Shown piece after piece: positions 11,163 through 40,036 of a stretch of 44,916 bases of DNA. Source of the DNA: a virus. A program made the position numbers and the translations under genes. Position 1 is the first letter of the stretch. Each line of letters begins with the position of its first letter. The stretch lies in the IMG/VR virus record IMGVR_UViG_3300037187_000017, positions 1-44,916 of that record, one strand, 5' to 3'. The notes beneath the pieces were generated by a model that was given only the letters and a program-made list of their open reading frames with translations, ran no database searches and was not told where the DNA came from.

Positions 11163-12596
11163 TCAGGAAGTAGCGAGGCCGACGTAGGCCGACAGGGTGC
11201 TGGCTGATCCGTTGTGCGGGGTGAGCGCCGACTGCAACCAGGGGCGGCCGTCCACGCGCTCGATGATCCGGTACGCGGTCTGGTCGTTCTGGAAGAACGC
11301 CTGGTCAGACGCGGCCACAGAGACCGACTGCCGGTCCCCGATCAGGTAGTAGGACAGGTCCACGAACGAGATGTCCCCGACCGACCCGAGCGGGCCAACC
11401 TTTTCGGTGAAGTACACCGGGCGGCCAAAGATGCTGATCGGAGGCGCGTCACTGACTCCTGGCACGTTGTAACCGCCCATCCACACGCCAGGCGTGGAGA
11501 GCGTCATCTGCGCGAGCTGCGGGAACACGTCGATGGAGGCGATCCACACCGCGCTCTTGAGCGAGGTGGGCAGCATCCGTGCGTACATTCCCACAATGTC
11601 CGCGTAGGTGACGATGTTCGAGCCGCCGCGGGCCACCTGGACGTATGCCGGGCTGTTGATGACGCCCTGCGGGGTGCCTGCACCAGTCTCGGTGAGGAAC
11701 GCCACGTCCTCGGCCCAGGCCAGGCCCGCGGGGATACGCGAGTCGAACCAGCCGGAGAACGCCGGAGCGTCGGCGAGCAGCTCGTTGGGGACCTTGAAGA
11801 AGCCGGTCAGCTTCTTGGCGTCCAGGGTGACCTTGCCGAACTTGGCCTGAGATTCGGTGATGCTCGAACCTTCCTCGGCCCAGTAGAACTGCACCCCGCC
11901 GAACAGCGAGCTGACGTGGCTGGTGTCGTCCACCGTGGGGATCGGCACCCGCAGCGTGCTCATCGGGATCACCGTGGCACGGGAGCGGACGATCGTGTCT
12001 TCCAGCGCCAGCTGGAGCAGATCCGACCGCATGATCTCCGGAATCAGGAAGCCACCACCCGCCGGGTCCTCAGATCCGAACGAGTTCTGGAACTGGCGAA
12101 CGTTCTCCAGCTTCTGCAGGAGTTCCTTGCGGTTCTTGGTCGCGGTCGGCCGGGCTTCCTCGCGGATCGCCTGGCAATATTCCCCCATCGACGCGAAGCG
12201 GTCCTCGTCTCGGTAAGCGTTCTCAAACGCGGCGCCGGGAGCTGACCGGTTGTAGACCGCGCCGCGGCCCTTGCTGACCGAAGCCGAGCCGTCCGCGCTG
12301 AGCTGGAGGTTGGGCCGGCCACCGCTGAACCCTACCGAGTTGGCCAGGTCGAGCGCGGGCTTCCGGCCACCGCCGGACTCGCGCACCATGTCGAACAGCG
12401 CGCTCTGCACCTGAGTGCGAACGTCATCCTGGATTCCGGGGTTCTTCTTGGCGTGGAGGACGGCGTAAGCGTCCAGGAACTCCTTGGTCGTGCCGTCCGC
12501 GATGGCCTCGGGCGAGAAATGCGCCTTCAGCCGTGCCGGGTCGGACAGCAGCTCGCGCAGCCCGTCACCGTCAGTAGGAACCTTGAGCTTCGTCAT
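11163..12596 (-). CDS. Major capsid protein, HK97 fold, with N-terminal delta/scaffold domain
   Basis: 477 residues. Residues 1-170 are helical and charged, fitting a delta-type scaffold domain that the prohead protease removes; the FASMGEYCQAIREE segment (134-147) resembles the N-arm. GGFLIPEIMRSDLLQL (181-196) marks the start of the mature core typical of HK97 capsids, followed by PTVDDTSHVSS, FYWAEEGSSITES, KKLTGFFKVPNELL and the FLTETGAGTPQGVI loop. The start overlaps the protease stop (ATGA), so both are made together. It forms the icosahedral shell. Confidence 0.92.
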   Translation of the reverse strand: MTKLKVPTDGDGLRELLSDPARLKAHFSPEAIADGTTKEFLDAYAVLHAKKNPGIQDDVRTQVQSALFDMVRESGGGRKPALDLANSVGFSGGRPNLQLSADGSASVSKGRGAVYNRSAPGAAFENAYRDEDRFASMGEYCQAIREEARPTATKNRKELLQKLENVRQFQNSFGSEDPAGGGFLIPEIMRSDLLQLALEDTIVRSRATVIPMSTLRVPIPTVDDTSHVSSLFGGVQFYWAEEGSSITESQAKFGKVTLDAKKLTGFFKVPNELLADAPAFSGWFDSRIPAGLAWAEDVAFLTETGAGTPQGVINSPAYVQVARGGSNIVTYADIVGMYARMLPTSLKSAVWIASIDVFPQLAQMTLSTPGVWMGGYNVPGVSDAPPISIFGRPVYFTEKVGPLGSVGDISFVDLSYYLIGDRQSVSVAASDQAFFQNDQTAYRIIERVDGRPWLQSALTPHNGSASTLSAYVGLATS

Positions 12597-14329
12597 CGTG
12601 CCGCCCCTTCCAGGCCGGTGCTAAACAACGCGGCCAGCAGGCCGGTGTCGATGTGATCGTCAGGCTCCCCATCGGGGTCTACCTGCCGCATTGCCGTCTC
12701 CAGCGTTGCGCGTGCCTGCCCCTCGTTAGTCAGGCGCATGCCGGACAGCCGGGCCATGCAATCCCGGACGCCCTGGCTGTTGGGCGGCGCCTCCGGGCCA
12801 TAGCGGTACGGCAGCGCGTAACTCGCCTGGTCTTCCGAGCTACCCGGCCGCCTTCCGGCGCAGATCTGGGAGTAGTACCAGGCCGGGTCAGCGGATTCGG
12901 CGCCTAGTGCCCAGGCAACGGCGGGATCCCAGTCGCTGCCATCCACTCCGGGAGCGTCCAGGTGCAGTGCCGCCCGCAGTGATGCCGGGTCGATGCCGTC
13001 GTCAGGATCCCAGTCCGGGTTGACCTGCTTCATGGCCTTCTCCAGCGTGGACTTGGCCTGTGCCGCGTTGGTGAGGCCCTGGGTGCTGGACAGCCGGGCC
13101 AGCCCTGCACGGACGCCAGCGGCATTCACGGGGCTGGACGGGGTGTACCTGTACGGCAGCGCCCAGGCGTCCTGAGTGGCCGGATCTCCGGACTTGCGGC
13201 CCGCGCAGATGCCCCGGTAGAACGCGGCCGGGTCGTCGGAGGCCGCGCCGTTGTGCCATGCCCGGGAAGCGTCCCACGGGCTCTCGTCCACCTCATCGAG
13301 CAGGACGGGGAACATGGCGCGGTTGCCCTTCTGGCCCGGGGCGAGAGGCTTGCCCTGCTTACCGTCCGGGTCGGGCGGGATCGCCTTAATCTGCTTGCCG
13401 GAGGCGTCCCAGTAATCGTGGTCTTTGTCGCCCGCGGCCGTGCCGTCGTTGTCGCCGTCGTTGTCGGGGTCGAACACCCACTTGCCGCCGCGCTGCTGCC
13501 AGCCGCCGTTGCCTGCGTTCTGCACATGCTGGCCGGCTGCATCGGATGCGGTGGCGTGGGCGTGCTCATGGCTGAAGTCACCATCATGGCCGTGCTCGTG
13601 CGCGTGGGTGGCGTCGCTTCCCTGACCGCCGTACGCCTGGTGGGTGTGGCTGTGGGTACCGTTCATCACGCCGTGGCCGTCAGAGTTGACCGGAGCCACG
13701 CTCTTGCCGTACACCGACAGATCCCAGGAGTCCTGCGCTGGCTCGTCACCGAGAATCCTGTCAGCGAGACCGGCCTCAACCGCAGCCTTGTCGGTGAACC
13801 AGGTCTCGGCGGACATCATCTCCTGCCAGAACGCCACCGGCTTACCGGAGCGCTCGGCGTAGATGCTGGCGATTTCCGTGGTCACCATGTCGAGCAGGTC
13901 GGCGGTCTTGCGCAGGTCGGCCGCGTCACCGATGCCCATGCTGAAGCCGTTATGGATCATCATTTGCGAATGCGGGGACATCTCCAGCTTGCCGGGCGAG
14001 GCCGCCTGGGCGATGAAGCTGGCAGCGGAGGCGGCCAGGCCGTCGATGATGACCGCAACTACGCCCTTGCGCTGCTTCAGCTGGTTGAAGATGGCCAGAC
14101 CGTCATGCACATCGCCGCCAGGCGAGTTGATGTGCAGCTCGAGGTCGCCGTTGATGCCCTTCAGGTCGGCCATGAACTCACCGGCCGGCACACCGAAGAA
14201 CCCGATCTCGTCGTAAATGGCGACCTGCGTCGGCTGGCCAGCGGCAGAGTTGGTGATCGAGTACCACTTCGGCAGTGTGCTCGTCATGTTCTGCAGCCGC
14301 CGGGTTGACCGCATCGGCCTGGTTTCCAT
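12593..14329 (-). CDS. ClpP-like prohead protease with His-rich linker and duplicated C-terminal domain
   Basis: 578 residues. Residues 18-195 are a ClpP/SppA-type S14 fold: HINSPGGDVHDGLA, the nucleophile motif DGLAASAAS (Ser101), MMIHN (His126) and FTDKAAVEAGLAD. This is the usual head maturation protease upstream of an HK97 capsid. Residues 225-268 are extremely His-rich and 287-305 Asp-rich (DPDNDGDNDG), suggesting metal and calcium binding. Residues about 352-465 and 467-578 are two copies of one domain with landmarks WD, ICAGR, YALPYRY, GVR and ARL, common in single copy at the end of phage head proteins. Start overlaps the portal stop as TGATG; a second start lies at MTSTLPK 14 codons later. 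Confidence 0.85.
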   Translation of the reverse strand: METRPMRSTRRLQNMTSTLPKWYSITNSAAGQPTQVAIYDEIGFFGVPAGEFMADLKGINGDLELHINSPGGDVHDGLAIFNQLKQRKGVVAVIIDGLAASAASFIAQAASPGKLEMSPHSQMMIHNGFSMGIGDAADLRKTADLLDMVTTEIASIYAERSGKPVAFWQEMMSAETWFTDKAAVEAGLADRILGDEPAQDSWDLSVYGKSVAPVNSDGHGVMNGTHSHTHQAYGGQGSDATHAHEHGHDGDFSHEHAHATASDAAGQHVQNAGNGGWQQRGGKWVFDPDNDGDNDGTAAGDKDHDYWDASGKQIKAIPPDPDGKQGKPLAPGQKGNRAMFPVLLDEVDESPWDASRAWHNGAASDDPAAFYRGICAGRKSGDPATQDAWALPYRYTPSSPVNAAGVRAGLARLSSTQGLTNAAQAKSTLEKAMKQVNPDWDPDDGIDPASLRAALHLDAPGVDGSDWDPAVAWALGAESADPAWYYSQICAGRRPGSSEDQASYALPYRYGPEAPPNSQGVRDCMARLSGMRLTNEGQARATLETAMRQVDPDGEPDDHIDTGLLAALFSTGLEGAAR

Positions 14330-16167
14330 CAGCGCCTTCCCGTCTCAACTGGCACATGGCCATCGCTCAGTACGCGCCTCAGCAGGTTGGCCAACTCATC
14401 GTCTGCGGGCTGGGTGGGGCGCAGCTGCTGGGTGTGCATGGTTTCCCACTCGCCGTGCTCGGTGTCCACCGTGCCGATGAAAGCGCGGACGGGGACGCCT
14501 TCCTGCTTCTCGGCCAGGTATCGGTGGTGGCCGTCCACCAGCTTTGGCTTCGTGCCGCCGGGCGTCTTCACCAGGATCACCGGCTTGAGCTTCTTGCCGG
14601 CCTTGAGCAGCTTCACGAAGTCGGCCACGTGCTCGGGGACCGCCTCGTCCAGCCACTCCATGCTCGGGTCGATGTGGCTCACCGGAACCTTGACCGGGCC
14701 GGTCCAGCTCGCGTGATGCATCCACGCCATCGCCTCGGGCGGGTAGTCCGCGGCCGCCAGCTCGAACACCTTGGCCGCTGGGTCGCGCTTGGCGATCAGC
14801 CGGTAAGACTGGCGGTTGCTCGCGCCGTCGTCATCCTGGTTCGGCGTGCCGGCGGGCTTTTGCGCCGGGGCGCCGCCAGGTGCGGGTGCGCCTCCGGGGA
14901 CCTCAGGAACCCAGCCAGGCGGCAGCGCTGGCGCCTGGGTGGCCTTCTCCACGATGGCCATGTCCGGCAGGCCGACCGTCTCCAGCACATCCGCCGGGTC
15001 GAATCCTGCATTGACCAGAACTGCGGCGGCCGCGGATTTGGCGGCCAGCTCGCCGTTGTCCTCTTCGCGGTTGTCCGGCGACGGGTCCTCGTAGTCGAAC
15101 TCGACGCCCTGGCCGGTGGTGCCGAACAGCGGCAGCAGCTTGCAATTCAGGGTGTCCTTGCGGCGGTCGAGACGGGGGATCGTCTGCCAGGAGATGAAGA
15201 CTTCCTCGGCCGTCTGGGCGTTGGCCCGGTTAACGTCGTCAGCGGTGCCCAGCATGGACTTGTGGACGCGCCACGCCTCGCGCAGCTCATCGCGGTTGGC
15301 CATCCGGAGGTTGCCGTACTCAAGATCCTTGTTGGTGTGGCCGGACGGCAGCCAGGATGCGCCGTTCTCCAGCACGCCGACGCGACCGGCCCGGGCAACG
15401 CCCTGATGGCCCTCACGCCAGCGGTCGATCAGCTCATCCCACTCGGCGTCGGACAGCCGCTTGTCAATCGAGATGACGCCGCCCGGGTCGGCCCCGTTGT
15501 AGAACAGGTTCCGCTGGTACTGGGTGGCGTACTCCTGCTGCTCCACGTTGGCCATAACGCTGCCGACCGGGCCCGCACCACGGAAGCAGTCGAGCGGGTC
15601 GGGCATCTTCTCCAGGATCACTTCGCTGTTCTGGAGCGGTATCTGCTCGCCATTGGGGGCGTTGTAGATCCAGCCGAGCAGGAAGTCATTGGCGTCCGGC
15701 ACCGGCTCCATCCGGTCAGGACGGACGTACCACATCGACGTTGGGAAGGTTGTGCCCTCGCTGTTCAGGACCCAGAACGTCTCGCCGGTCAGCTCAAGGT
15801 GCTGGTTGGCGCCCTCGCGGAACTCGAACGCGCTGTGGAAGTCGTTCGGCTTGCTCCACAGCGACAGCGCGGCGTGGTTGACAACCTCTATGCGCTGGTC
15901 GCTGCCCTTGTCGGCGGTCGTGTAGCGCCGCCTGCCATCCACCGGCTGCTTCTTGTACAAGTGCCAGGCCGGGCCTGCGGGCGCCGACTGGAGCAGGCTG
16001 ACGATCGAGAAGACCGTGCCGGAGCGGCGGTACGCCCGGAGCTGCTGCTCCCGGGACTGCCTGCCAGCGCCCAGGTCGAACGTCAGCCCGCGGCCCCGGC
16101 CGGAGGTGGACATCGGGACAGGAGGTCCCTGGTTCTGGTTCTTGATGCGCCGCAGCCCGGACTTCAT
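14329..16167 (-). CDS. Portal protein (HK97 type) with C-terminal ParB/Srx-like domain
   Basis: 612 residues. The first 400 follow the HK97 portal pattern: a SAPAGPAWHLYKK strand, FEFREGANQHLELTGETFW, MWYVRPDRMEPV, the NGADPGGVISID motif and NRANAQTAEEVFISWQTIPRL. The portal forms the dodecameric DNA gate. After a Pro/Ala-rich linker (about 425-455), residues about 495-570 look like a ParB/sulfiredoxin-type domain: VPVSHIDPS, then KLKPVILVK and LVDGHHRYLAE (from residue 544), where the DGHHR motif is the nucleotide-binding box of that superfamily. A portal with this fusion is unusual. The gene overlaps the next two by ATGA-type junctions. Confidence 0.85.
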   Translation of the reverse strand: MKSGLRRIKNQNQGPPVPMSTSGRGRGLTFDLGAGRQSREQQLRAYRRSGTVFSIVSLLQSAPAGPAWHLYKKQPVDGRRRYTTADKGSDQRIEVVNHAALSLWSKPNDFHSAFEFREGANQHLELTGETFWVLNSEGTTFPTSMWYVRPDRMEPVPDANDFLLGWIYNAPNGEQIPLQNSEVILEKMPDPLDCFRGAGPVGSVMANVEQQEYATQYQRNLFYNGADPGGVISIDKRLSDAEWDELIDRWREGHQGVARAGRVGVLENGASWLPSGHTNKDLEYGNLRMANRDELREAWRVHKSMLGTADDVNRANAQTAEEVFISWQTIPRLDRRKDTLNCKLLPLFGTTGQGVEFDYEDPSPDNREEDNGELAAKSAAAAVLVNAGFDPADVLETVGLPDMAIVEKATQAPALPPGWVPEVPGGAPAPGGAPAQKPAGTPNQDDDGASNRQSYRLIAKRDPAAKVFELAAADYPPEAMAWMHHASWTGPVKVPVSHIDPSMEWLDEAVPEHVADFVKLLKAGKKLKPVILVKTPGGTKPKLVDGHHRYLAEKQEGVPVRAFIGTVDTEHGEWETMHTQQLRPTQPADDELANLLRRVLSDGHVPVETGRR

Positions 16168-16442
16168 TCGGGGTCCGCCAGCTGGAGCTCAAGCACCATG
16201 AGCGAGATGCCGGTGACGATCCAGCCCGCAATCGTATTGGCGGTGAAGACGCCGTAGTCGATGCAGCCGTAAGCGGCCAGCGTGAGCGGCATCTGGAAGG
16301 CGCGAACCAGGACTGAAGACGCCGGAGCGCGCTTCGTGCGGGTGAGGAAGCTATGCAGCGGCCGGTACCAGCGCGCGGGAAGGCCGCGGAGTGTGCCCTG
16401 CGGCCTGGCTTGTGGCTGCCAGGCGGCTTCCCGAAGTGTCAC
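16164..16442 (-). CDS. Small membrane protein between terminase and portal, 92 aa
   Basis: Best start is GTG at 16442 (VTLREAAWQPQ), after the terminase stop; the open frame continues upstream to 16592 only by overlapping the terminase. The N-terminal half is basic and aromatic (RGLPARWYRPLHSFLTRTKR), the C-terminal half is hydrophobic with one long or two short membrane segments (about residues 52-88). It ends in ATGA overlap with the portal start. It could be a membrane-associated packaging accessory or a small holin-like protein, but holins rarely lie here. Function unknown. Confidence 0.5.
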   Translation of the reverse strand: MTLREAAWQPQARPQGTLRGLPARWYRPLHSFLTRTKRAPASSVLVRAFQMPLTLAAYGCIDYGVFTANTIAGWIVTGISLMVLELQLADPE

Positions 16443-16509
16443 CGCGCCCCACTGGCTGTAGTTAGCGCCAGGATACGCCTTTATGCACTCGGGTAGAGCA
16501 AATGTCCGG

Positions 16510-17874
16510 TCAGCGGCTGAACGAGGCAGGGATGGAGCGGTAGCGGGGCCGGCCAACCAGGTCGATGTGCGCCACCATGTACCGCATGGCATCCATGCCG
16601 TGATCGTTCTGCTTCAGCGGGGCTTCCTTCGCAGTTTCCCCGGCAGCCCGGGCCACGGCAGGATCCCAGACGTACTCCACGGCCTCGGCCTCTGTGCAGG
16701 TTGGCTTATGCGCGTCAGCGAGCGCGGCATCCTGCTCCACCAGAGCGTTGCGGCAGATAACCAGCCCCGGCTTCCCGTTGCCCTGCACCTTCAGCCGTGC
16801 CTGGACAGCCTGGATACCATCGCTGACGCTCTTGTGGGCCGCTGTGGTGCCCATGTCCATGTGCCGCTCGAGAGTGGCCCGGTCCTCGGCATCGTGGTCG
16901 CAGATAATCGCGTGCGGCGGCCGGTCGGAGTTTCGGCCATCCCCGCGTGCCATGACCGCAAGTGCTTGCTTGGCAAGATCCTCAACAAGCTGACCTGTCC
17001 GGTAGATCTCCCTGTAAAGGATCAACTGGCCGTCCGGGTTCTCCGTCCACCACTGCAGGCACGCGGGATTTCTGAATCCGAAGTCCACGGACAGGTAGCG
17101 CGTCCACTCTGGCGGCGGCATGAGCAGCGGCTTGCGCAGGTGGATCGACGGATCGAAGCCCTCGTACACCAGACCCTCGGCAGCGGCCCACAGGCCCTTA
17201 CGCAGCCGCTGGTAGCGCACTCCGGTCAGGTTCTCCAGCCGCGTGATGTAGGCGGCGCCTTCGCCTGTCCAGCGCTCGCCGTCCCACAGCCGGGGATTGT
17301 CCTCGTGCCTGCACGGCACCATCGTGGTAAGGCCACGCAGAGCGCGCTGGTTCAGCCAGTGGCCAGGCGGCCCGGGGTTGGTGTCTGCCATGAGCTGCTG
17401 GAAAGACGAGACGCCGTTTCGCAGCCGGGTGCTGATCGCTTCCCAGTCATCCTCGTCCAGCTCGATCGCTTCCTGGACGTACGCAATGTCGTACTCGGAT
17501 GACATAATGCGCGACGCCTTGTCGATGCCCCCGATGGTGATGGTCGCGCCATTGCTGTATCGGAAGCATGCCGCCTCGACCCGGCTGCCGCCGTAGAACA
17601 CCACCTCACCGGAGACGATGGCCTCCCTGGCCACGATCTCCCGGTAGGTGACCAGCGCGGTGGAGGTGAGGCTGACCGCGGTCTTGCGGAGGACCAGCGC
17701 TCGGAGATCTGGATTGAGCAGGCACATGGCGTGGATCTTCTCCAGGCACGCGCGGCTCTTGCCAGTACCAGCCGCGCCGGACAGCAGCACCTCAGGATCG
17801 CGGCAGGCGAACAGCTCGCGGGCGCTGCCAACCGGCTCGTAGCGATGAGTCGGCCGCTCAGCGGTTACGGTCAC
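16510..17874 (-). CDS. terL: Terminase large subunit
   Basis: 454 residues, the normal size for the Terminase_3/6 type. Walker A GAAGTGKS is at 33-40 and the Walker B segment YDIAYVQEA at 128-136. The nuclease domain shows SVDFGFRNP (D264), the acidic CDHDAED (325-331) and NDHGMDAMRY (423-432), the three acidic positions of the RNase H-like fold. It pumps phage DNA into proheads and cuts it. The start overlaps the small subunit stop (ATGA). All key residues appear intact. Confidence 0.93.
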   Translation of the reverse strand: MTVTAERPTHRYEPVGSARELFACRDPEVLLSGAAGTGKSRACLEKIHAMCLLNPDLRALVLRKTAVSLTSTALVTYREIVAREAIVSGEVVFYGGSRVEAACFRYSNGATITIGGIDKASRIMSSEYDIAYVQEAIELDEDDWEAISTRLRNGVSSFQQLMADTNPGPPGHWLNQRALRGLTTMVPCRHEDNPRLWDGERWTGEGAAYITRLENLTGVRYQRLRKGLWAAAEGLVYEGFDPSIHLRKPLLMPPPEWTRYLSVDFGFRNPACLQWWTENPDGQLILYREIYRTGQLVEDLAKQALAVMARGDGRNSDRPPHAIICDHDAEDRATLERHMDMGTTAAHKSVSDGIQAVQARLKVQGNGKPGLVICRNALVEQDAALADAHKPTCTEAEAVEYVWDPAVARAAGETAKEAPLKQNDHGMDAMRYMVAHIDLVGRPRYRSIPASFSR

Positions 17875-26296: not shown

Positions 26297-26935
26297 ATGG
26301 AACTCCCCACCTACACCGGCATCTGGAAGACGAAGCGGATCTTCTACAAGATCGAGGACATCAAGCTGCCCATGCCGGTGCCTGCCGACGTGCTGCTGAT
26401 GACCGCGGTCTGCTTCGCCGTCTGGGATCTGGTCTGGTGGGGAGCCATCGGGACTGCGCCGTTCAAGGCGGCGTTCGGGCCCAATGCCTGGTTCGCGGTC
26501 GCGTTCTGCTGGTACGCCCTGCCGCCGTTCTTTGCCGCCCGGCTGCTGGCCCGGCCGAACCGGGAGGGCAAGAACATCATCCAGGTGGTCAAGTCCTCCG
26601 CCCGGTACGCGCTGCGGGCTCACGTGCTTGACGGGTACGTGCCGCGGCGGCAGATCAAGCTGTGGCTGCGCGCCCGGTCGGTGCAGGCCACCTCTGGCGG
26701 GAAGCGCACCCGCCGGAGCGCCGCGCCCAGCCGGGCTCCCCGGCTCCCTGGTAAGAGCCTGCGTCCCGTGGCAGCCCGGCTCCGGGCACTGGGCGGCTGG
26801 GTTGTGCGGTGCCCAGGCCGCGCCGTTATGGCTCTTTTCTGCGAGGAGGACCTGGCGTCTTGTGTACGGCATCTGCTGGTCGGCGAGCGCACCCCGGATG
26901 AGGAGGAGGAAGGGTATGAAGACCCCACAGCGTAA
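26297..26935 (+). CDS. TcpE/VirB3-like conjugal transfer membrane protein
   Basis: 212 residues. The opening MELPTYTGIWKTKRIFYKIEDIKLPMPV matches the N-terminal signature of TcpE-family proteins; two membrane helices follow (PADVLLMTAVCFAVWDLVWW, WFAVAFCWYALPPFF). The last 100 residues are basic then acidic and overlap the VirB4 start. TcpE is the VirB3 counterpart and partner of the VirB4-like ATPase. Its order before virB4 is that of Tn916/pCW3. Confidence 0.75.
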   Translation: MELPTYTGIWKTKRIFYKIEDIKLPMPVPADVLLMTAVCFAVWDLVWWGAIGTAPFKAAFGPNAWFAVAFCWYALPPFFAARLLARPNREGKNIIQVVKSSARYALRAHVLDGYVPRRQIKLWLRARSVQATSGGKRTRRSAAPSRAPRLPGKSLRPVAARLRALGGWVVRCPGRAVMALFCEEDLASCVRHLLVGERTPDEEEEGYEDPTA

Positions 26936-29378
26936 CAGCGTTCCCGTCTGCTATTTCGATGGTCGGGTGCTGCTCACACTCACCGATGCGTGGGCGTATT
27001 TCGTGCTGCCGCCGGTCAGCTGGGCGTTCCTGTCCGACTCCGAGAACGAGCAGCAGATCGCGTCGGCCGCTTCCGCGTACGCGAACCTGCGAGCGCCGGA
27101 GGTGGAGCGGGCGAAGCTGACCGCTTTGTGGGAGGCCGCGAAGACCAGCAAGCTCTCGCCGGTAGCGGAGCTGCACATACGGACGGCCTGCAAGCGGCAC
27201 TCTGCGCAGGCGTGGGCGCGGCAGCTCGCAGCCTCCGGCCCGGCCACCCCGGGCTTCAACCGCCACCTGTCGCGGGTACTCGACGTGATCTCCGCCAGGG
27301 CCTACTGGGAGAAGGTCACCTACCTGGGAGTCCGGCTCGGTGCCCGGAAGCCTGGCCAGCTGATAGCCAGCCCCGGTTCGAGCGAGATCGCCAAGTGGGC
27401 GAACCTGGCCCACGGTGCCGGTATCACGCTTGGCGGTTCTGAGCTGCATGCCCGCCCCGCGGCCGCTGCTGAGATGGCCTGGCTTATCAGGCACACCAGC
27501 CAGGGCTCTTACCGGGACCTGGCGGCGCTGCCGCGGCTGTCCGCCTATGGCCCTGGCGACGTCGCAGAGCTGATGGACGCCACGCTGACCGAGAGCCGGA
27601 CGTCGCTTGCCCGTACCGCCGCCGGGAAGACCGAGCACACCACCGTACTCACCTTTGCCGGGTTCCCGAAGACCATGACCTACCCGAACGGTGGGCCGCC
27701 GTGGGCCGACCTGGCCGACTGGGCGTCCAATCCGGCGTTCCCGGCCGAGTACTCCGCGCGAATCAGGCTGATGGACCCCCAGCAGGTGGACAAGGACATC
27801 CGGCACAAGCTGATCAGCATTGACGAGGAGGCCGGCCACACAGCGTCCGCCGGCGCCCGGGTGCCGCTGGCGCTTCAGGAGCGGGTGACTGACGCGCAGA
27901 TGCTCCAGCACGCCCTGGCGACTACAGGCGACCCGGTGGCCTACGCTACCCACCGGCTGGTGATCACCGCCCCCGACGAGGGCGTCTGCAGGGACCGGGG
28001 CCGTGCGGTGACCGAGTACTGCAACCGGACGGGAATCAAGCTGGTCCGGCAGTCCTGTGACCAGCTTCCCCTGTACGCCGAGACGCTGCCGGGCGGCGCA
28101 CCGCGGCCCGCGCTGCACATGCAGCAGCAGCCGATGACCACCATTGCCGGGGGCATGCCGCAGGCCGCCGAGACGCTGGGTGACGGGACCGGGCCGTACC
28201 TGGGCACCGCCAAGACCCAGACCGCCAGCTCGGTGCACTGGAGCCCGTTCACCGCAGCGCGCCAGGATGACCCGACCGTTGCTGCGATCCTCGGTGAGCC
28301 CGGCGGCGGCAAGTCCTACCTCACGGGCCGGATCTGCCTGGACTCTGCGGTCACCCTCAACGCCACCGTCGTGATCATCGACCCGATCAAGAAGGAGATG
28401 CGCCAGCTGGCCCCGCTGCTCCGCCGGGCCGGGCGGCCGGTCAACGTGATCGCCATTGACGAGAGCCATCCTGGCCTGCTGGACCCGTTCCGGTTTGGCG
28501 GCCTCATGGGCGACAAGATCCAGCGCGCTGCTGAGGTGCTGATGATGCTGCTCCCGGACACGGTGGGAGACGCGGAGAAGGCATCCCGCCACGGCGCGGT
28601 GCTGCGAGCGGTGGATGCGGTCGCCGCCGCTCCTGACCCCTCGCTGCGCAAAGTGATCGACTGGCTCCGCAACGAGTCAGACGTCCGCCAGGGCGACGGC
28701 ACCAGGATCGAGGAGAACCTGGCCACCGAGCTCAACGTGATGTCCCGGATGCCGCTCGGCTCCCTGTGCTTCGCATCGGGGAACGCCGAGACCCTGGACA
28801 TCATGGGCCAGACCACCATCCTGACCTTCAGCGGCCTGGACCTGCCGTCCGCGACCACCGCGCCGGGGGCATACCGGATGGCTGAGCGGCTGTCCATCGC
28901 GCTGTACTACCTGGCCACCGAGCTGGTCCGCGGGCTGTTCGCCGCTGACCGGTCACTGCCGAAGCTGCTGGCGGTGGACGAGGCGTGGGCGCTGACCCGC
29001 GTCTCCCAGGGATCGCAGCTGATCGAGGCGACCAGCCGGATGGGACGCTCCCACAACATCGCCATGCTGCTCGCCTCCCACAACGTGGCCGACCTCCTGG
29101 ACGAGCGGATCACCGGGTGCATCTCCACCACCTTCGCCGTCCACTCCCGCGCTGACCGTGAGGTGTGCGCCGTGTTCCGGCAGCTGGGCATCGGCGACAC
29201 CCCCGGCAACCGCACCCGGCTCGGGGACCTGAAGACCGGTGAGGTAATCATGCGCGACCTGGCGGGCCGGATCGGCGTCGTGCAGGTCGATGACGGCGGC
29301 CCGGAGTTCATGGCCGGCATGGACACCAACCCGACGCGGTTCCGCGAGGCTGAGCGCGAGCTGGAGCGTGTGTCGTGA
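26916..29378 (+). CDS. VirB4-like conjugation ATPase (TcpF/Orf16 type)
   Basis: 820 residues from ATG 26916, with GGAGGA seven bases upstream and 20 bp inside the TcpE end; longer frames are shadow. The N-terminal 400 residues match the poorly conserved VirB4 N-domain (WAYFVLPPVSWAFL at the start). The AAA+ core has Walker A GEPGGGKS at 460-467 and Walker B LLAVDEAW at 684-691, with the intervening DPIKKEMRQLAPLL and the late SHNVADLLD motif typical of VirB4/TraC/TrbE. It would power assembly and substrate transfer in the cytoplasm-facing membrane complex. Confidence 0.85.
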   Translation: MKTPQRNSVPVCYFDGRVLLTLTDAWAYFVLPPVSWAFLSDSENEQQIASAASAYANLRAPEVERAKLTALWEAAKTSKLSPVAELHIRTACKRHSAQAWARQLAASGPATPGFNRHLSRVLDVISARAYWEKVTYLGVRLGARKPGQLIASPGSSEIAKWANLAHGAGITLGGSELHARPAAAAEMAWLIRHTSQGSYRDLAALPRLSAYGPGDVAELMDATLTESRTSLARTAAGKTEHTTVLTFAGFPKTMTYPNGGPPWADLADWASNPAFPAEYSARIRLMDPQQVDKDIRHKLISIDEEAGHTASAGARVPLALQERVTDAQMLQHALATTGDPVAYATHRLVITAPDEGVCRDRGRAVTEYCNRTGIKLVRQSCDQLPLYAETLPGGAPRPALHMQQQPMTTIAGGMPQAAETLGDGTGPYLGTAKTQTASSVHWSPFTAARQDDPTVAAILGEPGGGKSYLTGRICLDSAVTLNATVVIIDPIKKEMRQLAPLLRRAGRPVNVIAIDESHPGLLDPFRFGGLMGDKIQRAAEVLMMLLPDTVGDAEKASRHGAVLRAVDAVAAAPDPSLRKVIDWLRNESDVRQGDGTRIEENLATELNVMSRMPLGSLCFASGNAETLDIMGQTTILTFSGLDLPSATTAPGAYRMAERLSIALYYLATELVRGLFAADRSLPKLLAVDEAWALTRVSQGSQLIEATSRMGRSHNIAMLLASHNVADLLDERITGCISTTFAVHSRADREVCAVFRQLGIGDTPGNRTRLGDLKTGEVIMRDLAGRIGVVQVDDGGPEFMAGMDTNPTRFREAERELERVS

Positions 29379-30058
29379 TCGGCCAGCTGAAGGCCCGCCT
29401 GCCGAAGCTCGCGGCAGGGCTGGCGCTTGCCACCGTCGCTGCCGTGACCGGGCGGATCTCCTACACCCACATCTACAGCCTGACGCTCGCGCTGCATCAG
29501 CCGCACATGGTCGCCGTACTGATGCCGTTCGGTGTGGACGGCCTCATGGTGGTTGGCTCCGTCATCCTGCTGGATGCCACGGAGGTTGACTGGTGGCTCG
29601 GCTGGCTGGGCGTCGGCCCGGGTGCGGCGGTCAGCCTCTTCGCCAACGTGGAGTCCGGTATCAAGTACGGCTGGCTGGCCGCCGCGTGGGCTGGTGTTCC
29701 TGCCGTCGCGTTCGCGCTGTCCACCTTCATGCTGGAGCGCTGGCTGAAGGCGCAGGCGGCCAAGCCTGCTGCCGCCCTCGCTGAGGTGCCTGCATCTGAG
29801 CCCGCATCTGCTCCGAGTGCAGAGCTGGATGCACCGGATGCAGAGCTGGATGCACCGGATGCGCTTGCACCCGATGCACTCCCCGCCGCATCCAATGGCC
29901 ACAGCGCGGATGCACACCGGGTGCAGCAGGAGTGCAGCGGAGATGCAGTGCCCTCGCTGCGGAAGATCCAGGCCACTCTCGAGTGCGGCCAGAAGCGCGC
30001 CACACAGGTGCAGGCCGAAGTGCGCGAGATGCGTGAACTTGCCTTGGAGGCATCGTGA
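29375..30058 (+). CDS. DUF2637/SpdB-like membrane protein with Asp-Ala repeat and HTH-like tail
   Basis: 227 residues, GTG start overlapping the VirB4 stop. About four membrane helices (residues 11-125: LAAGLALATVAAVTG, PFGVDGLMVVGSVILL, YGWLAAAWAGVPAVAF) form the DUF2637 domain found next to TraB in Streptomyces integrative plasmids, where Spd proteins promote intramycelial spread. Then an acidic Asp/Ala-rich linker with a near-perfect repeat (AELDAPDA twice) and a C-terminus RKIQATLECGQKRATQVQAEVREM that looks like a helix-turn-helix. The linker is coded with unusual GAT GCA codons (see the TGCA cluster). Confidence 0.7.
   Translation: MIGQLKARLPKLAAGLALATVAAVTGRISYTHIYSLTLALHQPHMVAVLMPFGVDGLMVVGSVILLDATEVDWWLGWLGVGPGAAVSLFANVESGIKYGWLAAAWAGVPAVAFALSTFMLERWLKAQAAKPAAALAEVPASEPASAPSAELDAPDAELDAPDALAPDALPAASNGHSADAHRVQQECSGDAVPSLRKIQATLECGQKRATQVQAEVREMRELALEAS
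29791..30012. repeat. Dense TGCA / GGATGCA motif cluster inside the SpdB-like gene
   Basis: TGCA occurs 12 times in 222 bp (29791, 29818, 29830, 29839, 29851, 29866, 29875, 29911, 29922, 29933, 29944, 30009), with GGATGC six times in one orientation or the other. The 600 bp at 28261-28860 contains none. The Asp-Ala run could be coded with GAC GCC, the normal choice in this genome, so the codon choice looks selected or recently expanded. A cis-acting DNA site just before the translocase gene is possible. Confidence 0.5.
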
Positions 30059-31827
30059 GCACTCATGACCCGTCGCGCATCCTGCTGTTCGCGCAGCACT
30101 ACCCGCTGCTGACGATGGCCGCGCTGGCCGCGGCCGGGGTGTGGATCTGCCACGAGCGGGCTGCAGGTCTGCTGAACCGCGGACCACAGAACCAGGCCAC
30201 CGCCCGCGAGTGGGCTGGCGTACTGTTCCCGTTCCCCCTCGCGCTCGCCATTGGCGGCGCTCTGCTGCGCCCGGGACTGGCACTCATCGGTGCCGCTGTG
30301 CTGCTCCCTGCCGCCGCTGTGGCGTGGCCGGCAGCTCGCCGGTACCGGAGTCGCCACCAGCTTGACCGGGCCGTCCACCAGGCTGTGCGGGACAGCGTGG
30401 GGCACCGGGAGGGAACGCCTGCCCGGAAGTACCTGTCCCTCAAGCCTGACGGGTCCGTGCGGGTCCGGCTCACGCCCGAAGCCGCCAGTCACGAGAGCAA
30501 GGTCAAGCACATCATGCACGCCGTTCCGCAGGCTGCCGGGATGGGTGAGCACGTGGTCGAGCGCGCTCTGGACGGGCGCTGCCCGGTGCTTACCTTCCGC
30601 CTCAAAGAGAAGCCTGTGCCTATCGCGCGCAAGCTGTCCATCCGGGAGATCCTGCCGAAGCTCGCGGCCTGCGCCGGTCCTAAGACGGTCGTCGTCGGTC
30701 TGGCCCGGGGCGCGTCGGCCGTAGAGATGGACTTCGCCCGCGTCGTGCACATGCTGATCAGCGCCGCCACCGGCATCGGCAAGTCCAACCTGGTGACCTT
30801 CGTGCTCATGCAGTTCCTGTTCAAGGGCGCGGTCGCCGTCATCGTGGACCCGACCGGTATCTCCTACCCGTGGGCGCAGAGCCTGCCCAACGTGTTCTAC
30901 GCCCAGGACGACGAGGACATGCGGCGGGCCTGCTACTGGATTGACCGGGAGATCAAGCGCCGCACCAGGCTCGTGAACGCCAATGCCGACATCAGCGGCT
31001 TTGTAGAGGGCGGCTTCGGCCCGGACATCATCGTCGTGCCCGACGAGAAGAACCTGGCCGAGCGCCGTCTCACCGCTGACTGGCAGGCCCGCGGCGGCAA
31101 AGGCCGTGACCCCGCGCTGCGGATTCTGGACGACGTGCACTTCGCCGGCCGGAAGATCGGCGTGCACGCCGTCATGGCGATGGTCCGGGCCGACGCGGCT
31201 GCCTCCGGTGGCGGGACCGTGCGCGGGCAGGCCGGCCTGATCGCGTTCGGCGCCTCACCTAAGTCGTCCGAGTGGAACATGCTGTTCCGCGGCGAGCCGG
31301 TCCCGGTGTGCTCGGACAACCCGGTTCCGCAGGGGCGTATGCAGATGTGCGCGCTGGGCGAGGTGCACGAGGTGCAGGTCCCGCACTGCCTGGAGGTGCC
31401 CCGTACCGCCGCTGAGCGCCCTGCCGCGATGGAGCTTGCCCGCCAGGTCAGGGACTACAGCCAGTCCGGCACTATCACCCCGGTCCCGGCGGACCTGCTG
31501 GAGTCGGCAGCCCCGCAGCCCGGTGAAGATGAAGATGAGTACGTCGATTGTGGTGCTGGCCTGGGAGAACGTCGTACTCATACTCATCGTGCTCACGAAA
31601 ACGTGACGCTGCGGGAGGCCATCGATGAAGGGCTGATCGCCGGGCTCGACCTGAGCCAGCTTCGGAACAAGACCCGCAGTGGCTTCCCGGAACCTGCCGG
31701 GGAGCGCGGGAAAGAGAAGACCTACCTCCGCCCGGCCCTCCTCGCCTGGGAAGCCCAGCGCACCGGCCAGGAGCCAGAAGCCGACATCATCCCAATCAAC
31801 CGGGTGTCCCGGAAGGAAAACGCATGA
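30055..31827 (+). CDS. FtsK/TcpA/TraB-like DNA translocase (coupling protein)
   Basis: 590 residues. Residues 15-33 and about 55-95 contain membrane helices (LLTMAALAAAGVWIC, ALAIGGALLRPGLALIG). Motor core: Walker A SAATGIGKS at 236-244 after LISAAT, Walker B IIVVPDE at 325-331. Final Arg/Gln-rich region (LRNKTRSGFPEPAGERGKEK) could contact DNA. Neighbours are those of TraB/TcpA in Gram-positive systems: it would pump DNA through the channel, as single strand with a relaxase or as double strand in the TraB manner. Overlaps both adjacent genes by four bases. Confidence 0.8.
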   Translation: MSTHDPSRILLFAQHYPLLTMAALAAAGVWICHERAAGLLNRGPQNQATAREWAGVLFPFPLALAIGGALLRPGLALIGAAVLLPAAAVAWPAARRYRSRHQLDRAVHQAVRDSVGHREGTPARKYLSLKPDGSVRVRLTPEAASHESKVKHIMHAVPQAAGMGEHVVERALDGRCPVLTFRLKEKPVPIARKLSIREILPKLAACAGPKTVVVGLARGASAVEMDFARVVHMLISAATGIGKSNLVTFVLMQFLFKGAVAVIVDPTGISYPWAQSLPNVFYAQDDEDMRRACYWIDREIKRRTRLVNANADISGFVEGGFGPDIIVVPDEKNLAERRLTADWQARGGKGRDPALRILDDVHFAGRKIGVHAVMAMVRADAAASGGGTVRGQAGLIAFGASPKSSEWNMLFRGEPVPVCSDNPVPQGRMQMCALGEVHEVQVPHCLEVPRTAAERPAAMELARQVRDYSQSGTITPVPADLLESAAPQPGEDEDEYVDCGAGLGERRTHTHRAHENVTLREAIDEGLIAGLDLSQLRNKTRSGFPEPAGERGKEKTYLRPALLAWEAQRTGQEPEADIIPINRVSRKENA

Positions 31828-33884
31828 TCCGCCGTCTTGCTCTGCTCGTCGTCGCGGTGACGCTCACCATCCTGGGTACCGCCGGGATGGCGCTCGCGTC
31901 CACGTCGGCCCCGGCCCGGCCTGCCGCGACCCCCATCACCCAGTGCAGCCAGCTCCAGTTCCTGGGACCGCAGGCGGTGGCCGCCTGCAACCTTGGACCC
32001 CCGGCGAACAGCGCAATCAGCGGCCTGCTGCATGACCTCAACCCGGCCAACCTGGTCAACGGTGCCAACAACACCTGCCAGCCAGGGGTACCGATGCCGG
32101 AGTCCGCGGCTGACTCCACGCTGCTCGCGCCCTCCCCGGTTCCGGCGGCTCAGCGGACGCTGTGGACCTCCTACGGCACGTCCGGGCTGTTCTGGGCCCC
32201 CTACAACCTGCAGTGCTCCGAGTGGGAAGACCTGCTCGGCAACAGCTGGGCCAATGGGCTGTTCACTACCGCCAAGGTGATCACCTCGGTGACGCTGACG
32301 GTGGTGCACGCCGCCACCACGCCGAACCTGCTGCGCGGAATTCAGGGCACCATCGACAAGGCGATCGTCGCTGTCGGCAACGTTGCCAGGCAGTGGATGG
32401 TGGTCATCATCCTCCTGGGCGGCGCGTACATGGCGTGGGCGCTGCTGCGCCACCGGTCCCGCGAGGTGCTCACCTCCGTCCTGCACATGGTCATCTTTGC
32501 GGTGCCTCTGCTGCTGCTGATCGCCATGCCGCAGCTGTGGACCGGCATCCCGGCGTGGGTGGTCAATACCTCCACGTCGGTGACCAGCGACATCTTCTCC
32601 ACCATGCCGAAGGTGGGCGCCAGTACTTCCTGCCTGGCCGTCCAGCCGGGCGACCCGCAGTCCGCCGGGGAAGGAGCCACCGCTGCGGACCACGGCCAGG
32701 ATGCGCTGTGGGGCTTCATGGCGTGCCGCCCGTGGCTGGCCGGGGAGTTCTCCGACCCCGCGCTCCAGACGTCTTACGGCCGGGCGCTGCTGTGGAGCCA
32801 GAGCTTCGCAGCCGGTGAGCCGCAGACCACTGCTACCGCCAGCCTGAAGGCGCAGCTGTACGGCGGGATCGACAACGAGATCAACAAGAACGACCCCGGC
32901 TCGGTGGATCTGTTCGAGGGCAACCTGTACCAGCAGCGGATGATGATCGCCACTCTCGCCATCGTCATGGATCTGGTGCTGGCGGTCCTGTTCATCGGGC
33001 TGGCGTGCACGCTGCTGTTCGCTCAGGTCGGCTTCTTCCTGCTGATGGTCGCCGCCCCGGTCTTCCTGCTGGTTGGCATGTACCCGGGCACCGCTGGCCG
33101 GGTGTTCTGCCTGCGCTGGTACGAGCGGATGCTGGGCCTGCTGGTGAAGATGGCCGTGGCCACCGTCCTGCTGACCGGGATGCTGTGGGTGTTCGGGCTG
33201 CTGGTTGGCCTGTCCAGCTCGTGGCTGATCCAGGGCCTGCTGATCGTCGGGGCCGGAGTCACCCTCATCGTCAAGCGCAAGAAGATCATCACGGGCGCGG
33301 TCACCGCCAAGGGCAGCATGGCTGCGAAGGTCACCGGCACTCCTGCCGCAGCGCAGCCCGCGCACGCCACTGCGCCGAAGCGTGCTGTGGCCGGAGCGGG
33401 TGTGCTCGGGGCAGCGGCCGGATACGAGGCCGCCCGCCACCACGCATCCCGGCCTCCGGAGCAGAGTGCATTTCACAAGACGGTGAAGGCCGGCCAGCAG
33501 GTAGCGGCGGCGTACTCCACAGGCGGTCTGTCCGCTGCGGGTGCATCCGCATCCGGGCTTGCACACGGCCAGGTGCAGAAGCGCCGGGATGCGAAGCGTG
33601 CATCCGCTGAGCAGATGCAGGCGGATGCAGCCGCGAAAGAGCAGCAGTGGCGGGATGCACTCCCCGGCAAGGTGCACCAGCAGGCTGCATCCGAGCAGCT
33701 GCGCGGGAACTTCCCGAACGGGAAGGCAGCCCCGGTGCAGTGGGAGAACCCCGACTCTGCCAGGCACCGCCGCCGGGCACAGGAGCAGCTGGACGGCCAG
33801 TTCCCGGAGTGGAAGACCGCACCTCCGCCTGAGGAGCACCACGAGAACGGCAACGGCAGCCATCAGGACCGGGAAGAGGCGTAA
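31824..33884 (+). CDS. VirB6-like polytopic membrane protein (TcpH/Orf15 type)
   Basis: 686 residues with an N-terminal signal-like segment (LLVVAVTLTILGTAGMALA, to about 26), an extracellular Cys-containing domain (residues 40-150) and about six membrane helices (around 145-165, 190-210, 220-240, 375-395, 395-420, 440-485). The topology and the long C-terminal hydrophilic domain match VirB6/TrbL proteins of Gram-positive transfer systems. The tail contains two related motifs (QLRGNFPNGKAAPVQW and QLDGQFPEWKTAPP) and many basic residues. The DNA for this tail again carries dense TGCA and GCATCC. Confidence 0.78.
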   Translation: MIRRLALLVVAVTLTILGTAGMALASTSAPARPAATPITQCSQLQFLGPQAVAACNLGPPANSAISGLLHDLNPANLVNGANNTCQPGVPMPESAADSTLLAPSPVPAAQRTLWTSYGTSGLFWAPYNLQCSEWEDLLGNSWANGLFTTAKVITSVTLTVVHAATTPNLLRGIQGTIDKAIVAVGNVARQWMVVIILLGGAYMAWALLRHRSREVLTSVLHMVIFAVPLLLLIAMPQLWTGIPAWVVNTSTSVTSDIFSTMPKVGASTSCLAVQPGDPQSAGEGATAADHGQDALWGFMACRPWLAGEFSDPALQTSYGRALLWSQSFAAGEPQTTATASLKAQLYGGIDNEINKNDPGSVDLFEGNLYQQRMMIATLAIVMDLVLAVLFIGLACTLLFAQVGFFLLMVAAPVFLLVGMYPGTAGRVFCLRWYERMLGLLVKMAVATVLLTGMLWVFGLLVGLSSSWLIQGLLIVGAGVTLIVKRKKIITGAVTAKGSMAAKVTGTPAAAQPAHATAPKRAVAGAGVLGAAAGYEAARHHASRPPEQSAFHKTVKAGQQVAAAYSTGGLSAAGASASGLAHGQVQKRRDAKRASAEQMQADAAAKEQQWRDALPGKVHQQAASEQLRGNFPNGKAAPVQWENPDSARHRRRAQEQLDGQFPEWKTAPPPEEHHENGNGSHQDREEA
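33467..33739. repeat. Second TGCA / GCATCC-rich cluster inside the VirB6-like gene
   Basis: TGCA begins at 33467, 33542, 33560, 33574, 33599, 33616, 33626, 33656, 33673, 33686 and 33736; GGATGC/GCATCC occurs eight times. A 13 bp word GATGCACTCCCCG is shared with the first cluster (29874 and 33655). Both lie in hydrophilic, low-constraint coding regions, so the DNA may be the functional unit. Confidence 0.5.
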
Positions 33885-34945: not shown

Positions 34946-35019
34946 CGGGTGCCGGTCCCCGCGCGTCGGGCCGTGCAGCTCTCCAGCTCAGCGATCCGGA
35001 GCTCCAGGTCTTCGCTCAC
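34942..35019 (-). pseudogene. 25-codon remnant or micro-ORF at the phage/transfer-module junction
   Basis: GTG at 35019 overlaps the minor-tail stop (GTGA). The peptide begins VSEDLELRIAELESC, a coiled-coil start typical of small phage proteins after the tail genes, but stops after 25 codons in TTAA, the same four bases that end the hydrolase gene on the other strand. It may be a real micro-protein or the head of a phage gene cut when the transfer operon was inserted. This also marks the convergent end of both operons; no strong terminator hairpin is visible in the gap. Confidence 0.4.
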
Positions 35020-39335: not shown

Positions 39336-40036
39336 CAGGAGAAGTTGTTCCAGGACATGGTGAACGCGCCGCCGGAGTACGCACTAGGCGTCTGGTCGGT
39401 GAGCACGTTGACCGTGGTGATGTAGTTCAGGTCGAAGGTGTTGATAGCGGGAACGGTGGCGATGTTGCTGAAGGTGAGCGTCCCGTAGTCAGGCAGGTCG
39501 TTGGAGCCTTCCTTCTCGATGATGATCTCGGCCGTGTTGTACGGGTAATTCCACTGGCCAGTGCAGACGCCCACCGACTGGACCGGGGTTGAGCTCGTTA
39601 CCGACCAGCCTTCGGTGTGGTTGACCTGCGTAGCCACCCAGTAGTTGCCGGTGATGGCAAGCGTCAGCGTCAGGACATCCCCGGCGGCCAGCGGGTAGAC
39701 CGAGATGTCCCAGAACTCGCTGCCAGCGCCCCCGGAGCCTGAGATAAACCATGTCCAGGACGACAGGGGATTGTTGTTGCCGGAATGCCCGGTGTCGTAG
39801 ATGGAGTAGATCCCCGTCTGCATGACGTTGCCGATGCCCACCCAAATGCTTGAGTAGGCCCCGGCATCCCCGGACAGCGCGGGAACCGTGAAGGTAGCCG
39901 TGACCGAGGTGACCGGCGCGCTGGTCGCCTGGTAGACCAGGCCGCCCCAGCCGGTCTGCGTGGAGGTGCCCGGAACCGGCGGCCAGTCACCGTCCCAGGT
40001 GTTAGTCCGCTCCAGAAGTCCCGCAGGCAGGCTCAT
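39335..40036 (-). CDS. Tail protein with peptidase G1 (eqolisin)-like domain
   Basis: 233 residues; nearly the whole chain is one beta-sandwich. The landmarks SSIWVGIG then VMQTGIYS (Q73), SSWTWFIS, LAAGDVLTL and TAEIIIEKEG (E170/E174) with PDYGTLTFSNI match the order and spacing of fungal and bacterial glutamic peptidases (scytalidoglutamic type: WVGI, LQTG, ysaWyEW, GD, AEWIvE, fgtvtF), including a Gln and a Glu at the catalytic positions. The fold can also be a non-catalytic lectin-like module. It sits between GH16-like and minor tail genes, overlapping each by a few bases. Confidence 0.6.
   Translation of the reverse strand: MSLPAGLLERTNTWDGDWPPVPGTSTQTGWGGLVYQATSAPVTSVTATFTVPALSGDAGAYSSIWVGIGNVMQTGIYSIYDTGHSGNNNPLSSWTWFISGSGGAGSEFWDISVYPLAAGDVLTLTLAITGNYWVATQVNHTEGWSVTSSTPVQSVGVCTGQWNYPYNTAEIIIEKEGSNDLPDYGTLTFSNIATVPAINTFDLNYITTVNVLTDQTPSAYSGGAFTMSWNNFS

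What the first reader, a model, noticed from the sequence alone, without database searches (positions are those of the whole stretch)
14329..16167. Portal protein fused to a ParB/Srx-like domain
After a normal HK97-type portal, residues about 495-570 include KLKPVILVK and LVDGHHRYLAE, the nucleotide-binding box of the ParB/sulfiredoxin superfamily, in which CTPase or nuclease activity is known. A domain like this on the DNA gate might process DNA ends, sense nucleotides, or tether the virion genome.
Basis: partly seen in the sequence, partly recalled or inferred. Interest (0 to 1): 0.55.

Follow-up and report, generated by a model that had tools for sequence, protein, structure and literature searches.

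The report
Phage portals carrying ParB-like effector domain
The DNA-gate (portal) protein of this bacterial virus carries an extra ParB/sulfiredoxin-type domain that recurs, with an almost unchanging DGHHR motif, on the portals of many uncultured phages, so it is probably a nucleotide-binding enzyme carried inside the virus particle and used when infection starts.

Summary
Residues 51-388 are an HK97-type portal; residues ~463-581 are a ParB/Srx-fold domain (AlphaFold2 pLDDT 86; VIA Z 9.8 to sulfiredoxin, 9.3 to ParB) between a Pro-rich linker and a short conserved tail. It is not a one-off: one IMG/VR scan confirmed 223 loci (best 80 returned). Of 94 contigs examined, 77 carry it in one reading frame with a portal, over four PHROG portal families and often with MuF or NUDIX; ten appear to encode it as a small separate gene. 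GHH is invariant in 83/83 distinct domains, the arginine in 82/83; DGHHR is the motif reported for Tox-ParB toxin domains. The nearest readable portals (74-83% identical) lack the domain, so it is an accessory. Best reading: a capsid-internal, portal-tethered nucleotide-binding/phosphoryl-transfer effector acting at DNA entry. Activity, ligand, location and release are untested. Portal/MuF effector fusions are a published theme; I found this ParB/Srx branch on portals neither in my literature searches nor, with eight queries, in 50,697 cultured-phage records. New variant of a known kind.

The parts
14332..16167 (-). Portal-ParB/Srx fusion gene, 612 aa (stop codon at 14329-14331)
15004..16017 (-). 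HK97-type portal body (residues 51-388)
   Evidence: PF04860 E 7e-46; phrog_2662 E 8e-57 over residues 32-386
14788..14958 (-). Pro/Ala/Gly-rich linker (residues ~404-460), low confidence in the full-length model
   Evidence: sequence; pLDDT <50 over 398-474
14425..14787 (-). ParB/Srx-fold domain (profile match residues 461-581)
14602..14637 (-). Helix (residues 511-522) at the place of ParB box I / C motif, followed by loop 523-529
   Evidence: predicted secondary structure; box definition from PMC12704722 section 9; the equivalence is my inference
14521..14535 (-). DGHHR motif (residues 545-549), the P motif / box II GxxR
   Evidence: GHH 83/83, R 82/83 distinct domains; position checked
14425..14448 (-). 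Conserved W574..H578..Q581 helix, near the place of ParB box III but without ENxQR
   Evidence: W574 82/83, H578 75/83; Q581 25/27
14332..14400 (-). C-terminal tail peptide (residues 590-612), also found in portals that lack the domain
12596..14329 (-). Next gene: ClpP/S14-like head maturation protease with long C-terminal extension
   Evidence: PF00574 E 2e-30, phrog_2976 E 7e-64
11166..12596 (-). Major capsid protein
   Evidence: PF05065 E 4e-46
16513..17874 (-). Terminase large subunit
   Evidence: PF04466 E 8e-8; phrog_2 E 1.5e-31

Best explanation
The C-terminal domain is an accessory effector module of the ParB/Srx superfamily, like the DGHHR 'Tox-ParB' toxin domains in its motif. It hangs by a flexible linker on the C-terminal tail of the portal, which in known portals points into the capsid, so up to 12 copies would sit around the DNA channel inside the head. 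It most likely binds a nucleotide through box I and the DGHHR P motif and uses it in phosphoryl transfer or hydrolysis on nucleotides or nucleic acid in the first moments of infection (host take-over or counter-defence), either while still tethered or after proteolytic release and ejection with the DNA. Shown here: the predicted fold, the conserved motif, the fusion, its recurrence, its absence from near relatives, and purifying selection in close pairs. Inferred: location inside the head, copy number, nucleotide binding, catalysis, time of action. Not known: ligand, substrate, whether the domain is cut off the portal.
For: Fold: pLDDT 86 model and Z 9.8/9.3 to Srx/ParB. Motif: DGHHR in 80 of 83 distinct domains, EGHHR in 2, DGHHH in 1; Tox-ParB domains have 'a strongly conserved DGHHR motif' (PMC3482391 section 25). 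A predicted box I helix of 12 residues and a ~7-residue loop agree with the ~12 and ~6 of CTP/ATP binders, and several phage ParB-fold fusions bound CTP or ATP in vitro (PMC12704722, passages and section 9). Context: portal in the same ORF in 77 of 94 contigs, with MuF in 9 and NUDIX in 19 of the 62 ORFs of the last scan; published surveys place such domains on portals/MuF and read them as injected effectors (PMC5512222, PMC9503650, passages). Ten contigs appear to have it as a separate gene of about 135-163 aa; a head or connector gene lies nearby in L047, L089 and L116. Selection: dN/dS 0.095 (L014/L025) and 0.14 (L036/L040), the two closest pairs. Accessory: absent from portals 74-83% identical; portal tree forces at least 3 changes of presence. 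No ParA: 0 of 16 records, 14 of 14 controls positive. P22: portal C-termini putatively form an inward barrel and ejection proteins cluster there (PMC4992974 abstract).
Against: No ligand, activity or virion data. Portals normally stay in the virion (recalled), and no cleavage site was shown. The strong bias to portals over other head proteins could mean that the job is done at the gate, not in the host. Not every ParB-fold protein binds nucleotides: in the 2025 survey 11 of 28 purified proteins did. One domain (L041) has lost the arginine. The four more distant pairs give dN/dS of 0.34-0.43, much like their portals, so constraint on the domain is not stronger than on the portal. Sequence relation to real Tox-ParB proteins was not measured; only the motif as described in print was compared. 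No immunity gene was sought. The full-length model is poor (pLDDT 49), so the placement relative to the portal is unmodelled. Upstream ORFs of the separate genes in L097 and L129 matched no family.
Confidence: 0.5

Rival explanations
1. The domain works in place, at the gate: a nucleotide-gated ring of up to 12 ParB/Srx domains around the channel that holds, senses or trims the DNA during packaging termination or ejection, and is never delivered.
For: Strong bias to portals (77 of 94 contigs) across four PHROG portal families (phrog_2662/12, 145, 146, 64); the conserved short tail peptide keeps it on the portal. Canonical ParB is a CTP-dependent DNA clamp (PMC12704722, passages).
Against: Close relatives make do without it (portal 83% identical in G016). 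Ten contigs appear to encode it as a separate gene. It often sits beside NUDIX and MuF, which look like delivered cargo. No HTH or other known DNA-binding part was found in the window protein.
Confidence: 0.22
2. The domain is a binding module without enzymatic role: a structural cap, or a shield/decoy that alters recognition of the portal by host sensors that detect portal proteins.
For: Some bacterial immune proteins bind phage head proteins, for example SpbK with SPbeta YonE (PMC12847820, only the start of its abstract in a search listing; that YonE is the portal is recalled); presence varies between close relatives.
Against: The putative active-site residues are among the most conserved (G546, H547, H548 83/83), which a shield would not need.
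Confidence: 0.1
3. A sulfiredoxin- or serine-kinase-like metabolic enzyme carried in the virion.
For: Best sequence match among solved structures is SerK (E 7e-6); best fold match is sulfiredoxin (Z 9.8).
Against: The sulfiredoxin active-site cysteine (GGCHR, recalled) is replaced: the motif is GHH in 83 of 83 domains; SerK Glu30 falls in an insertion relative to the family profile.
Confidence: 0.06
4. A ParB partition protein for a phage-plasmid or lysogen, fused to the portal.
For: Weak matches to ParB partition models.
Against: No HTH or dimerisation domain found, no ParA match in 16 of 16 records, several of them fragments, fused to a late virion protein; the window carries an integrase.
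Confidence: 0.02

Closest known systems
Tox-ParB domains of polymorphic toxins (PMC3482391, section 25 and passages read)
   Same: ParB fold with a strongly conserved DGHHR motif; effector-like placement at the end of a delivery protein
   Different: Carried on phage portals or as small late genes, not on RHS/haemagglutinin toxins; no immunity gene sought; conserved W482, W488, W574 not compared with Tox-ParB
DdrB-like ParB domains of phage polyvalent proteins (PMC5512222, section 15 and passages read)
   Same: ParB/Srx domain in phage late genes, predicted NTP-regulated DNase/nucleotidase packaged in the head
   Different: Theirs are described as having one conserved Arg, a D/N at the end of strand 2 and an extra helix with Tyr; ours has DGHHR and a W..H..Q helix. 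The passages seen report portal fusions for PBECR, 2H and InPase, none for ParB
Portal/MuF effector fusions: PBECR, 2H, InPase, NudE-like Nudix, ART/VIP2 (PMC5512222, PMC9503650, PMC7302621, passages)
   Same: Enzyme domain in one protein with a portal or MuF protein, often mixed with other cargo
   Different: Different catalytic fold; this ParB/Srx branch is not named in the passages seen
SerK / SbnI free serine kinases
   Same: Nearest solved sequences; SerK shares VDGHHR-W
   Different: Catalytic Glu30 of SerK not aligned; the solved proteins are about twice as long (242-256 residues)
Canonical ParB/Noc CTPases
   Same: Fold, box I position, GxxR P motif
   Different: No HTH or dimerisation domain found, no ParA match, no ENxQR box III

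Membership tests
ParB/Srx superfamily | ParB/Srx alpha+beta fold | tested here: met
   AF2 pLDDT 86; Foldseek 21 PDB hits E<=0.001; VIA Z 9.8 Srx, 9.3 ParB
ParB/Srx superfamily | Box II P motif GxxR | tested here: met
   G546 83/83, R549 82/83
ParB/Srx superfamily | Box I helix of ~12 and loop of ~6 residues | tested here: met
   predicted helix 511-522 and loop 523-529 against PMC12704722 section 9; lengths only, contacts not modelled
ParB/Srx superfamily | Nucleotide binding | not testable with these tools
   needs protein
Canonical ParB (partition) | HTH and C-terminal dimerisation domain after the CTPase fold | tested here: not met
   31 residues follow the domain; Pfam finds only the portal in the window protein; TIGR00180 below cut-off
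Canonical ParB (partition) | ParA partner gene | tested here: not met
   PF13614 in 0 of 16 records, several of them fragments; controls 14 of 14
Sulfiredoxin | Catalytic cysteine in GGCHR (motif recalled) | tested here: not met
   GHH in 83 of 83 domains, no cysteine in the motif
SerK serine kinase | Catalytic Glu30 | tested here: inconclusive
   the residue mutated in 5x0e (E30A) lies in an insertion relative to the profile
Tox-ParB | DGHHR motif | tested here: met
   80 of 83 DGHHR, 2 EGHHR, 1 DGHHH; motif from PMC3482391
Tox-ParB | Sequence relation to Tox-ParB members; toxin delivery and immunity gene | not tested
   no Tox-ParB sequences were fetched
DdrB-like ParB | Match to a DdrB-ParB profile | tested here: inconclusive
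   no Pfam family matched the domain at E<=10; that the library holds a DdrB-ParB model is recalled, not checked
Portal-borne effector fusions | Effector-like domain in one ORF with portal or MuF | tested here: met
   77 of 94 contigs with portal
Portal-borne effector fusions | Packaged in the virion and delivered | not testable with these tools
   needs virion proteomics or infection assays
HK97-type portal | PF04860 domain between terminase and protease/capsid genes | tested here: met
   same order in Streptomyces phage Dagobah

The most novel reading that the evidence does not exclude
A large family of DGHHR ParB/Srx domains, with no Pfam model that matches it, has been attached to the portal independently or by repeated recombination in at least four PHROG portal families because its job is done at the portal: up to 12 nucleotide-switched domains around the DNA channel act on the genome end, or on nucleotides, as DNA leaves or enters, a DNA gate with an enzyme ring.
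Probability: 0.2. Interest if true: 0.8.

Novelty: new variant of a known kind. Interest (0 to 1): 0.55.

Why it matters
It adds a widespread, strongly conserved, probably nucleotide-binding fold to the list of domains that phages carry on the portal, the one protein every outgoing and incoming genome must pass. Presence/absence between portals up to 83% identical gives natural comparison pairs, so whether the domain acts during packaging, ejection or after entry is directly testable. It also links the DGHHR ParB domains known from bacterial toxins to phage virion genes.

Tried and rejected
Chance motif: rejected. Partition protein: rejected. Sulfiredoxin: rejected on the missing cysteine.

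Cultured phages: eight domain sequences from eight members were compared with 50,697 phage records by tblastn. Seven gave nothing at their limits (1e-3 to 1); one search gave 6 records at E 6e-4 to 0.7, among them ParB/methyltransferase proteins of Rhizobium phages and a ParB-N protein, none annotated as a portal. The tool says records near the window's genome may be left out. Plasmids: P0002 matched 186 records; the 20 listed are portal matches that do not reach the domain; one domain query gave 7 records at E 0.07-0.1, not followed. Genome contigs: two scans with narrow peptide patterns confirmed no relative; this says little, as the patterns were specific to the window's subfamily. Prokaryote genomes by kinship could not be searched from a virus record.

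Full-length model: mean pLDDT 49, not used for placement; no structure search was made with it. Discordance of portal and domain identity (L015/L026 81% vs 51%; window/L012 48% vs 67%) suggests shuffling, but overall the two correlate (r 0.81 over 153 pairs), so much of the history may be joint descent. On the 16-row portal tree 'domain present' is neither clustered nor dispersed beyond chance (205 of 500 shuffles as low). MuF-like regions in L015 and L027 were seen by eye only; PHROG matches support L021 and, weakly, L026 (phrog_595, E 4e-7 and 0.0016).

Counting limits: one search confirmed 223 loci but returned the best 80, so the 94 contigs are the best matches, not a random sample; 62 new contigs were classified. 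The 94 are not independent: 89 ORFs were analysed (L033-L035 and L045-L046 left out as copies), 85 distinct proteins, 83 distinct domains. The 17 contigs outside the portal count are: separate genes L043-L047, L080, L089, L097, L116, L129; 5'-truncated L013, L038, L039, L085; L093 (861 aa, no portal match); L109 (not scanned against a library); L119 (phrog_104 at E 5e-4 only). L083 and L128 are counted as portal on short pieces. L033-L035 were counted as copies of L032 from equal ORF length and identical printed parts, L040 by its 96% identical portal. That L043-L047 are separate genes rests on an inferred start codon; the frames run on upstream. The lengths 148-163 aa are stop-to-stop. Neighbours of the separate genes were scanned in 4 loci (L047, L089, L097, L116) and in L129; L097 and L129 gave none.

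Portal relatives that could not be read to the end: L006 (in-frame stop), L008, L010 (truncated). The nearest domain-bearing portals are 69% (L015) and 68% (L057) identical to the window's.
Full report
What is there. The ORF is on the minus strand, 14329..16167, 612 aa. Gene order on that strand is terminase (16513-17874), a small gene with weak matches to membrane-protein families (16167-16592), the portal fusion, a ClpP-type head protease (12596-14329) and the major capsid protein (11166-12596). Streptomyces phage Dagobah, whose portal is the best cultured match (39.8% identity), has terminase, two small genes, portal, Clp protease and capsid in the same order, and its portal (445 aa) ends without the domain. 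The window's portal body is residues 51-388 (PF04860 E 7e-46). After a Pro/Ala/Gly-rich linker comes a domain at ~463-581 and then a short tail peptide.

The domain is ParB/Srx. PHROG phrog_1033 matches residues 509-555 at E 1.3e-7. No Pfam family matches it. A profile of 15 relatives finds SerK at E 7e-6, SbnI at 0.012 and ParB at 0.34 among solved sequences. AlphaFold2 on 9 relatives gives pLDDT 86.2 and pTM 0.81; Foldseek and VIA-align place it with sulfiredoxin, Noc, ParB and SerK (Z 9.8, 9.7, 9.3, 7.9).

It is a family. Successive scans of IMG/VR gave 94 contigs, the window included, in which I read the ORF carrying the domain; the last scan confirmed 223 loci and returned the best 80. 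A profile finds the domain in all 89 ORFs analysed. A portal lies in the same ORF in 24 of the first 32 contigs and, of 62 later ones, in 49 by phmmer against labelled portals and in 4 more by PHROG: 77 of 94. The portals belong to phrog_2662/12 (window), phrog_145 (L030, L042), phrog_146 (L101, L114, L117) and phrog_64 (L064). MuF or NUDIX domains are often in the same protein (L018, L029, L039; MuF in 9 and NUDIX in 19 of the 62 later ORFs). Ten contigs appear to have a separate gene: L043-L047 (135-136 aa from an inferred start) and L080, L089, L097, L116, L129 (148-163 aa ORFs); a connector or major head protein gene lies nearby in L047, L116 and L089, while the upstream ORFs tested in L097 and L129 matched nothing. 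L093 is an exception: 861 aa without a portal match.

Conservation. In 83 distinct domains, W482, P529, G546, H547, H548 and A552 are invariant; W488, R549 and W574 occur in 82, D545 in 81, H578 in 75. The motif is DGHHR in 80. Six pairs were tested for selection: the two closest give dN/dS of 0.095 (L014/L025) and 0.14 (L036/L040); four more distant ones 0.34-0.43; portals of the same pairs range from 0.11 to 0.45.

An accessory module. The portals nearest to the window's that could be read to the end, 83% (G016), 80% (L001, L002), 75% (L003, L004) and 74% (L005) identical, lack the domain and run from the Pro-rich linker to a short tail; the tail peptide is alike in the window, L001, L005 and, less closely, G016. 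The nearest portals with the domain are 69% (L015) and 68% (L057) identical. L016 has the domain and its sister L009 does not. On a portal tree of 16 rows at least 3 changes of presence are forced by starred branches. G+C of the domain (0.682) is close to that of the portal (0.667), so there is no mark of recent foreign origin.

Mechanism. Portal C-termini putatively form an inward barrel in P22, and ejection proteins cluster there (PMC4992974, abstract); that this portal does the same is inference. The box I helix and loop lengths and the GxxR motif agree with nucleotide-binding ParB-fold proteins; [quoted passage not shown] The DGHHR motif is described for toxin ParB domains and predicted to be part of a metal-binding active site (PMC3482391, section 25); in the held library no other paper holds the string DGHHR. 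Surveys report PBECR, 2H, InPase, Nudix and ART domains on portals or MuF and read them as injected (PMC5512222, PMC9503650, passages); portal-MuF and MuF-VIP2 fusions are known in Microbacterium phages (PMC7302621, passages). Together these favour a virion-borne effector over a partition, sulfiredoxin or serine-kinase role. Whether it works in the host after release or in place at the gate is open; the bias to portals keeps the second alive.

Novelty. My searches for ParB with portal, MuF, Srx, toxin or NUDIX listed no paper that, in what I saw, reports this fusion; only open-access papers are held. The main text of the 2025 ParB-fold survey contains neither 'portal' nor 'capsid'; its supplements could not be read. 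Cultured phages show no portal-fused member with eight queries (see Tried and rejected). As the kind of thing (enzyme domain on portal or MuF) is known, I rate it a new variant of a known kind.

Noticed in passing
window 26484-34945 (+): Conjugation-like block inside a phage genome: VirB4-like AAA_10 ATPase, DUF2637 protein, DUF87/HerA-like protein, TrbL/VirB6-like membrane protein, NlpC/P60+lysozyme. A second phage contig (G016/L049) with an 83% identical portal carries the same VirB4-like gene (73% aa identity over 811 residues), so at least that gene belongs to this phage lineage; none of 15 other records with the ParB domain has a match above the family's cut-off.
   Followed up: partly
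L027:1-3840: Intein (PF14890) inside the MuF-like part of a portal-MuF-ParB fusion protein.
   Followed up: no
L081, L108, L077 (ORFs of 1740, 1525, 1731 aa): Very long portal proteins combining portal, MuF and the ParB/Srx domain, with NUDIX in L081 and L108.
   Followed up: partly
window 14332-14400 (-); tails of L001, L005, L015, L021, L026, L057: Short conserved portal C-terminal peptide (like LLRRVLSDG-x-x-P-x-E) kept whether or not cargo is inserted before it; may be a docking or targeting tail.
   Followed up: no
window 12596-14329 (-); L001:3696-5456: Head protease has a very long C-terminal extension; in L001 it holds a His-rich stretch and a twice-repeated segment (by eye).
   Followed up: no
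L093:3248-5830: Domain in an 861-aa ORF without portal match, followed by a long region with no PHROG family: the one clear non-portal fusion seen.
   Followed up: no
window 35016-39335 and 40036-41205 (-): Tail-region proteins with matches to a phage phosphodiesterase family (phrog_24476) and to glycosyl hydrolase family 16.
   Followed up: no
L021, L026, L057, L059, C-terminal part of the portal fusion: Cys-rich module (C..C.MF....C.LVKG......VC) between ParB domain and tail peptide (by eye).
   Followed up: no
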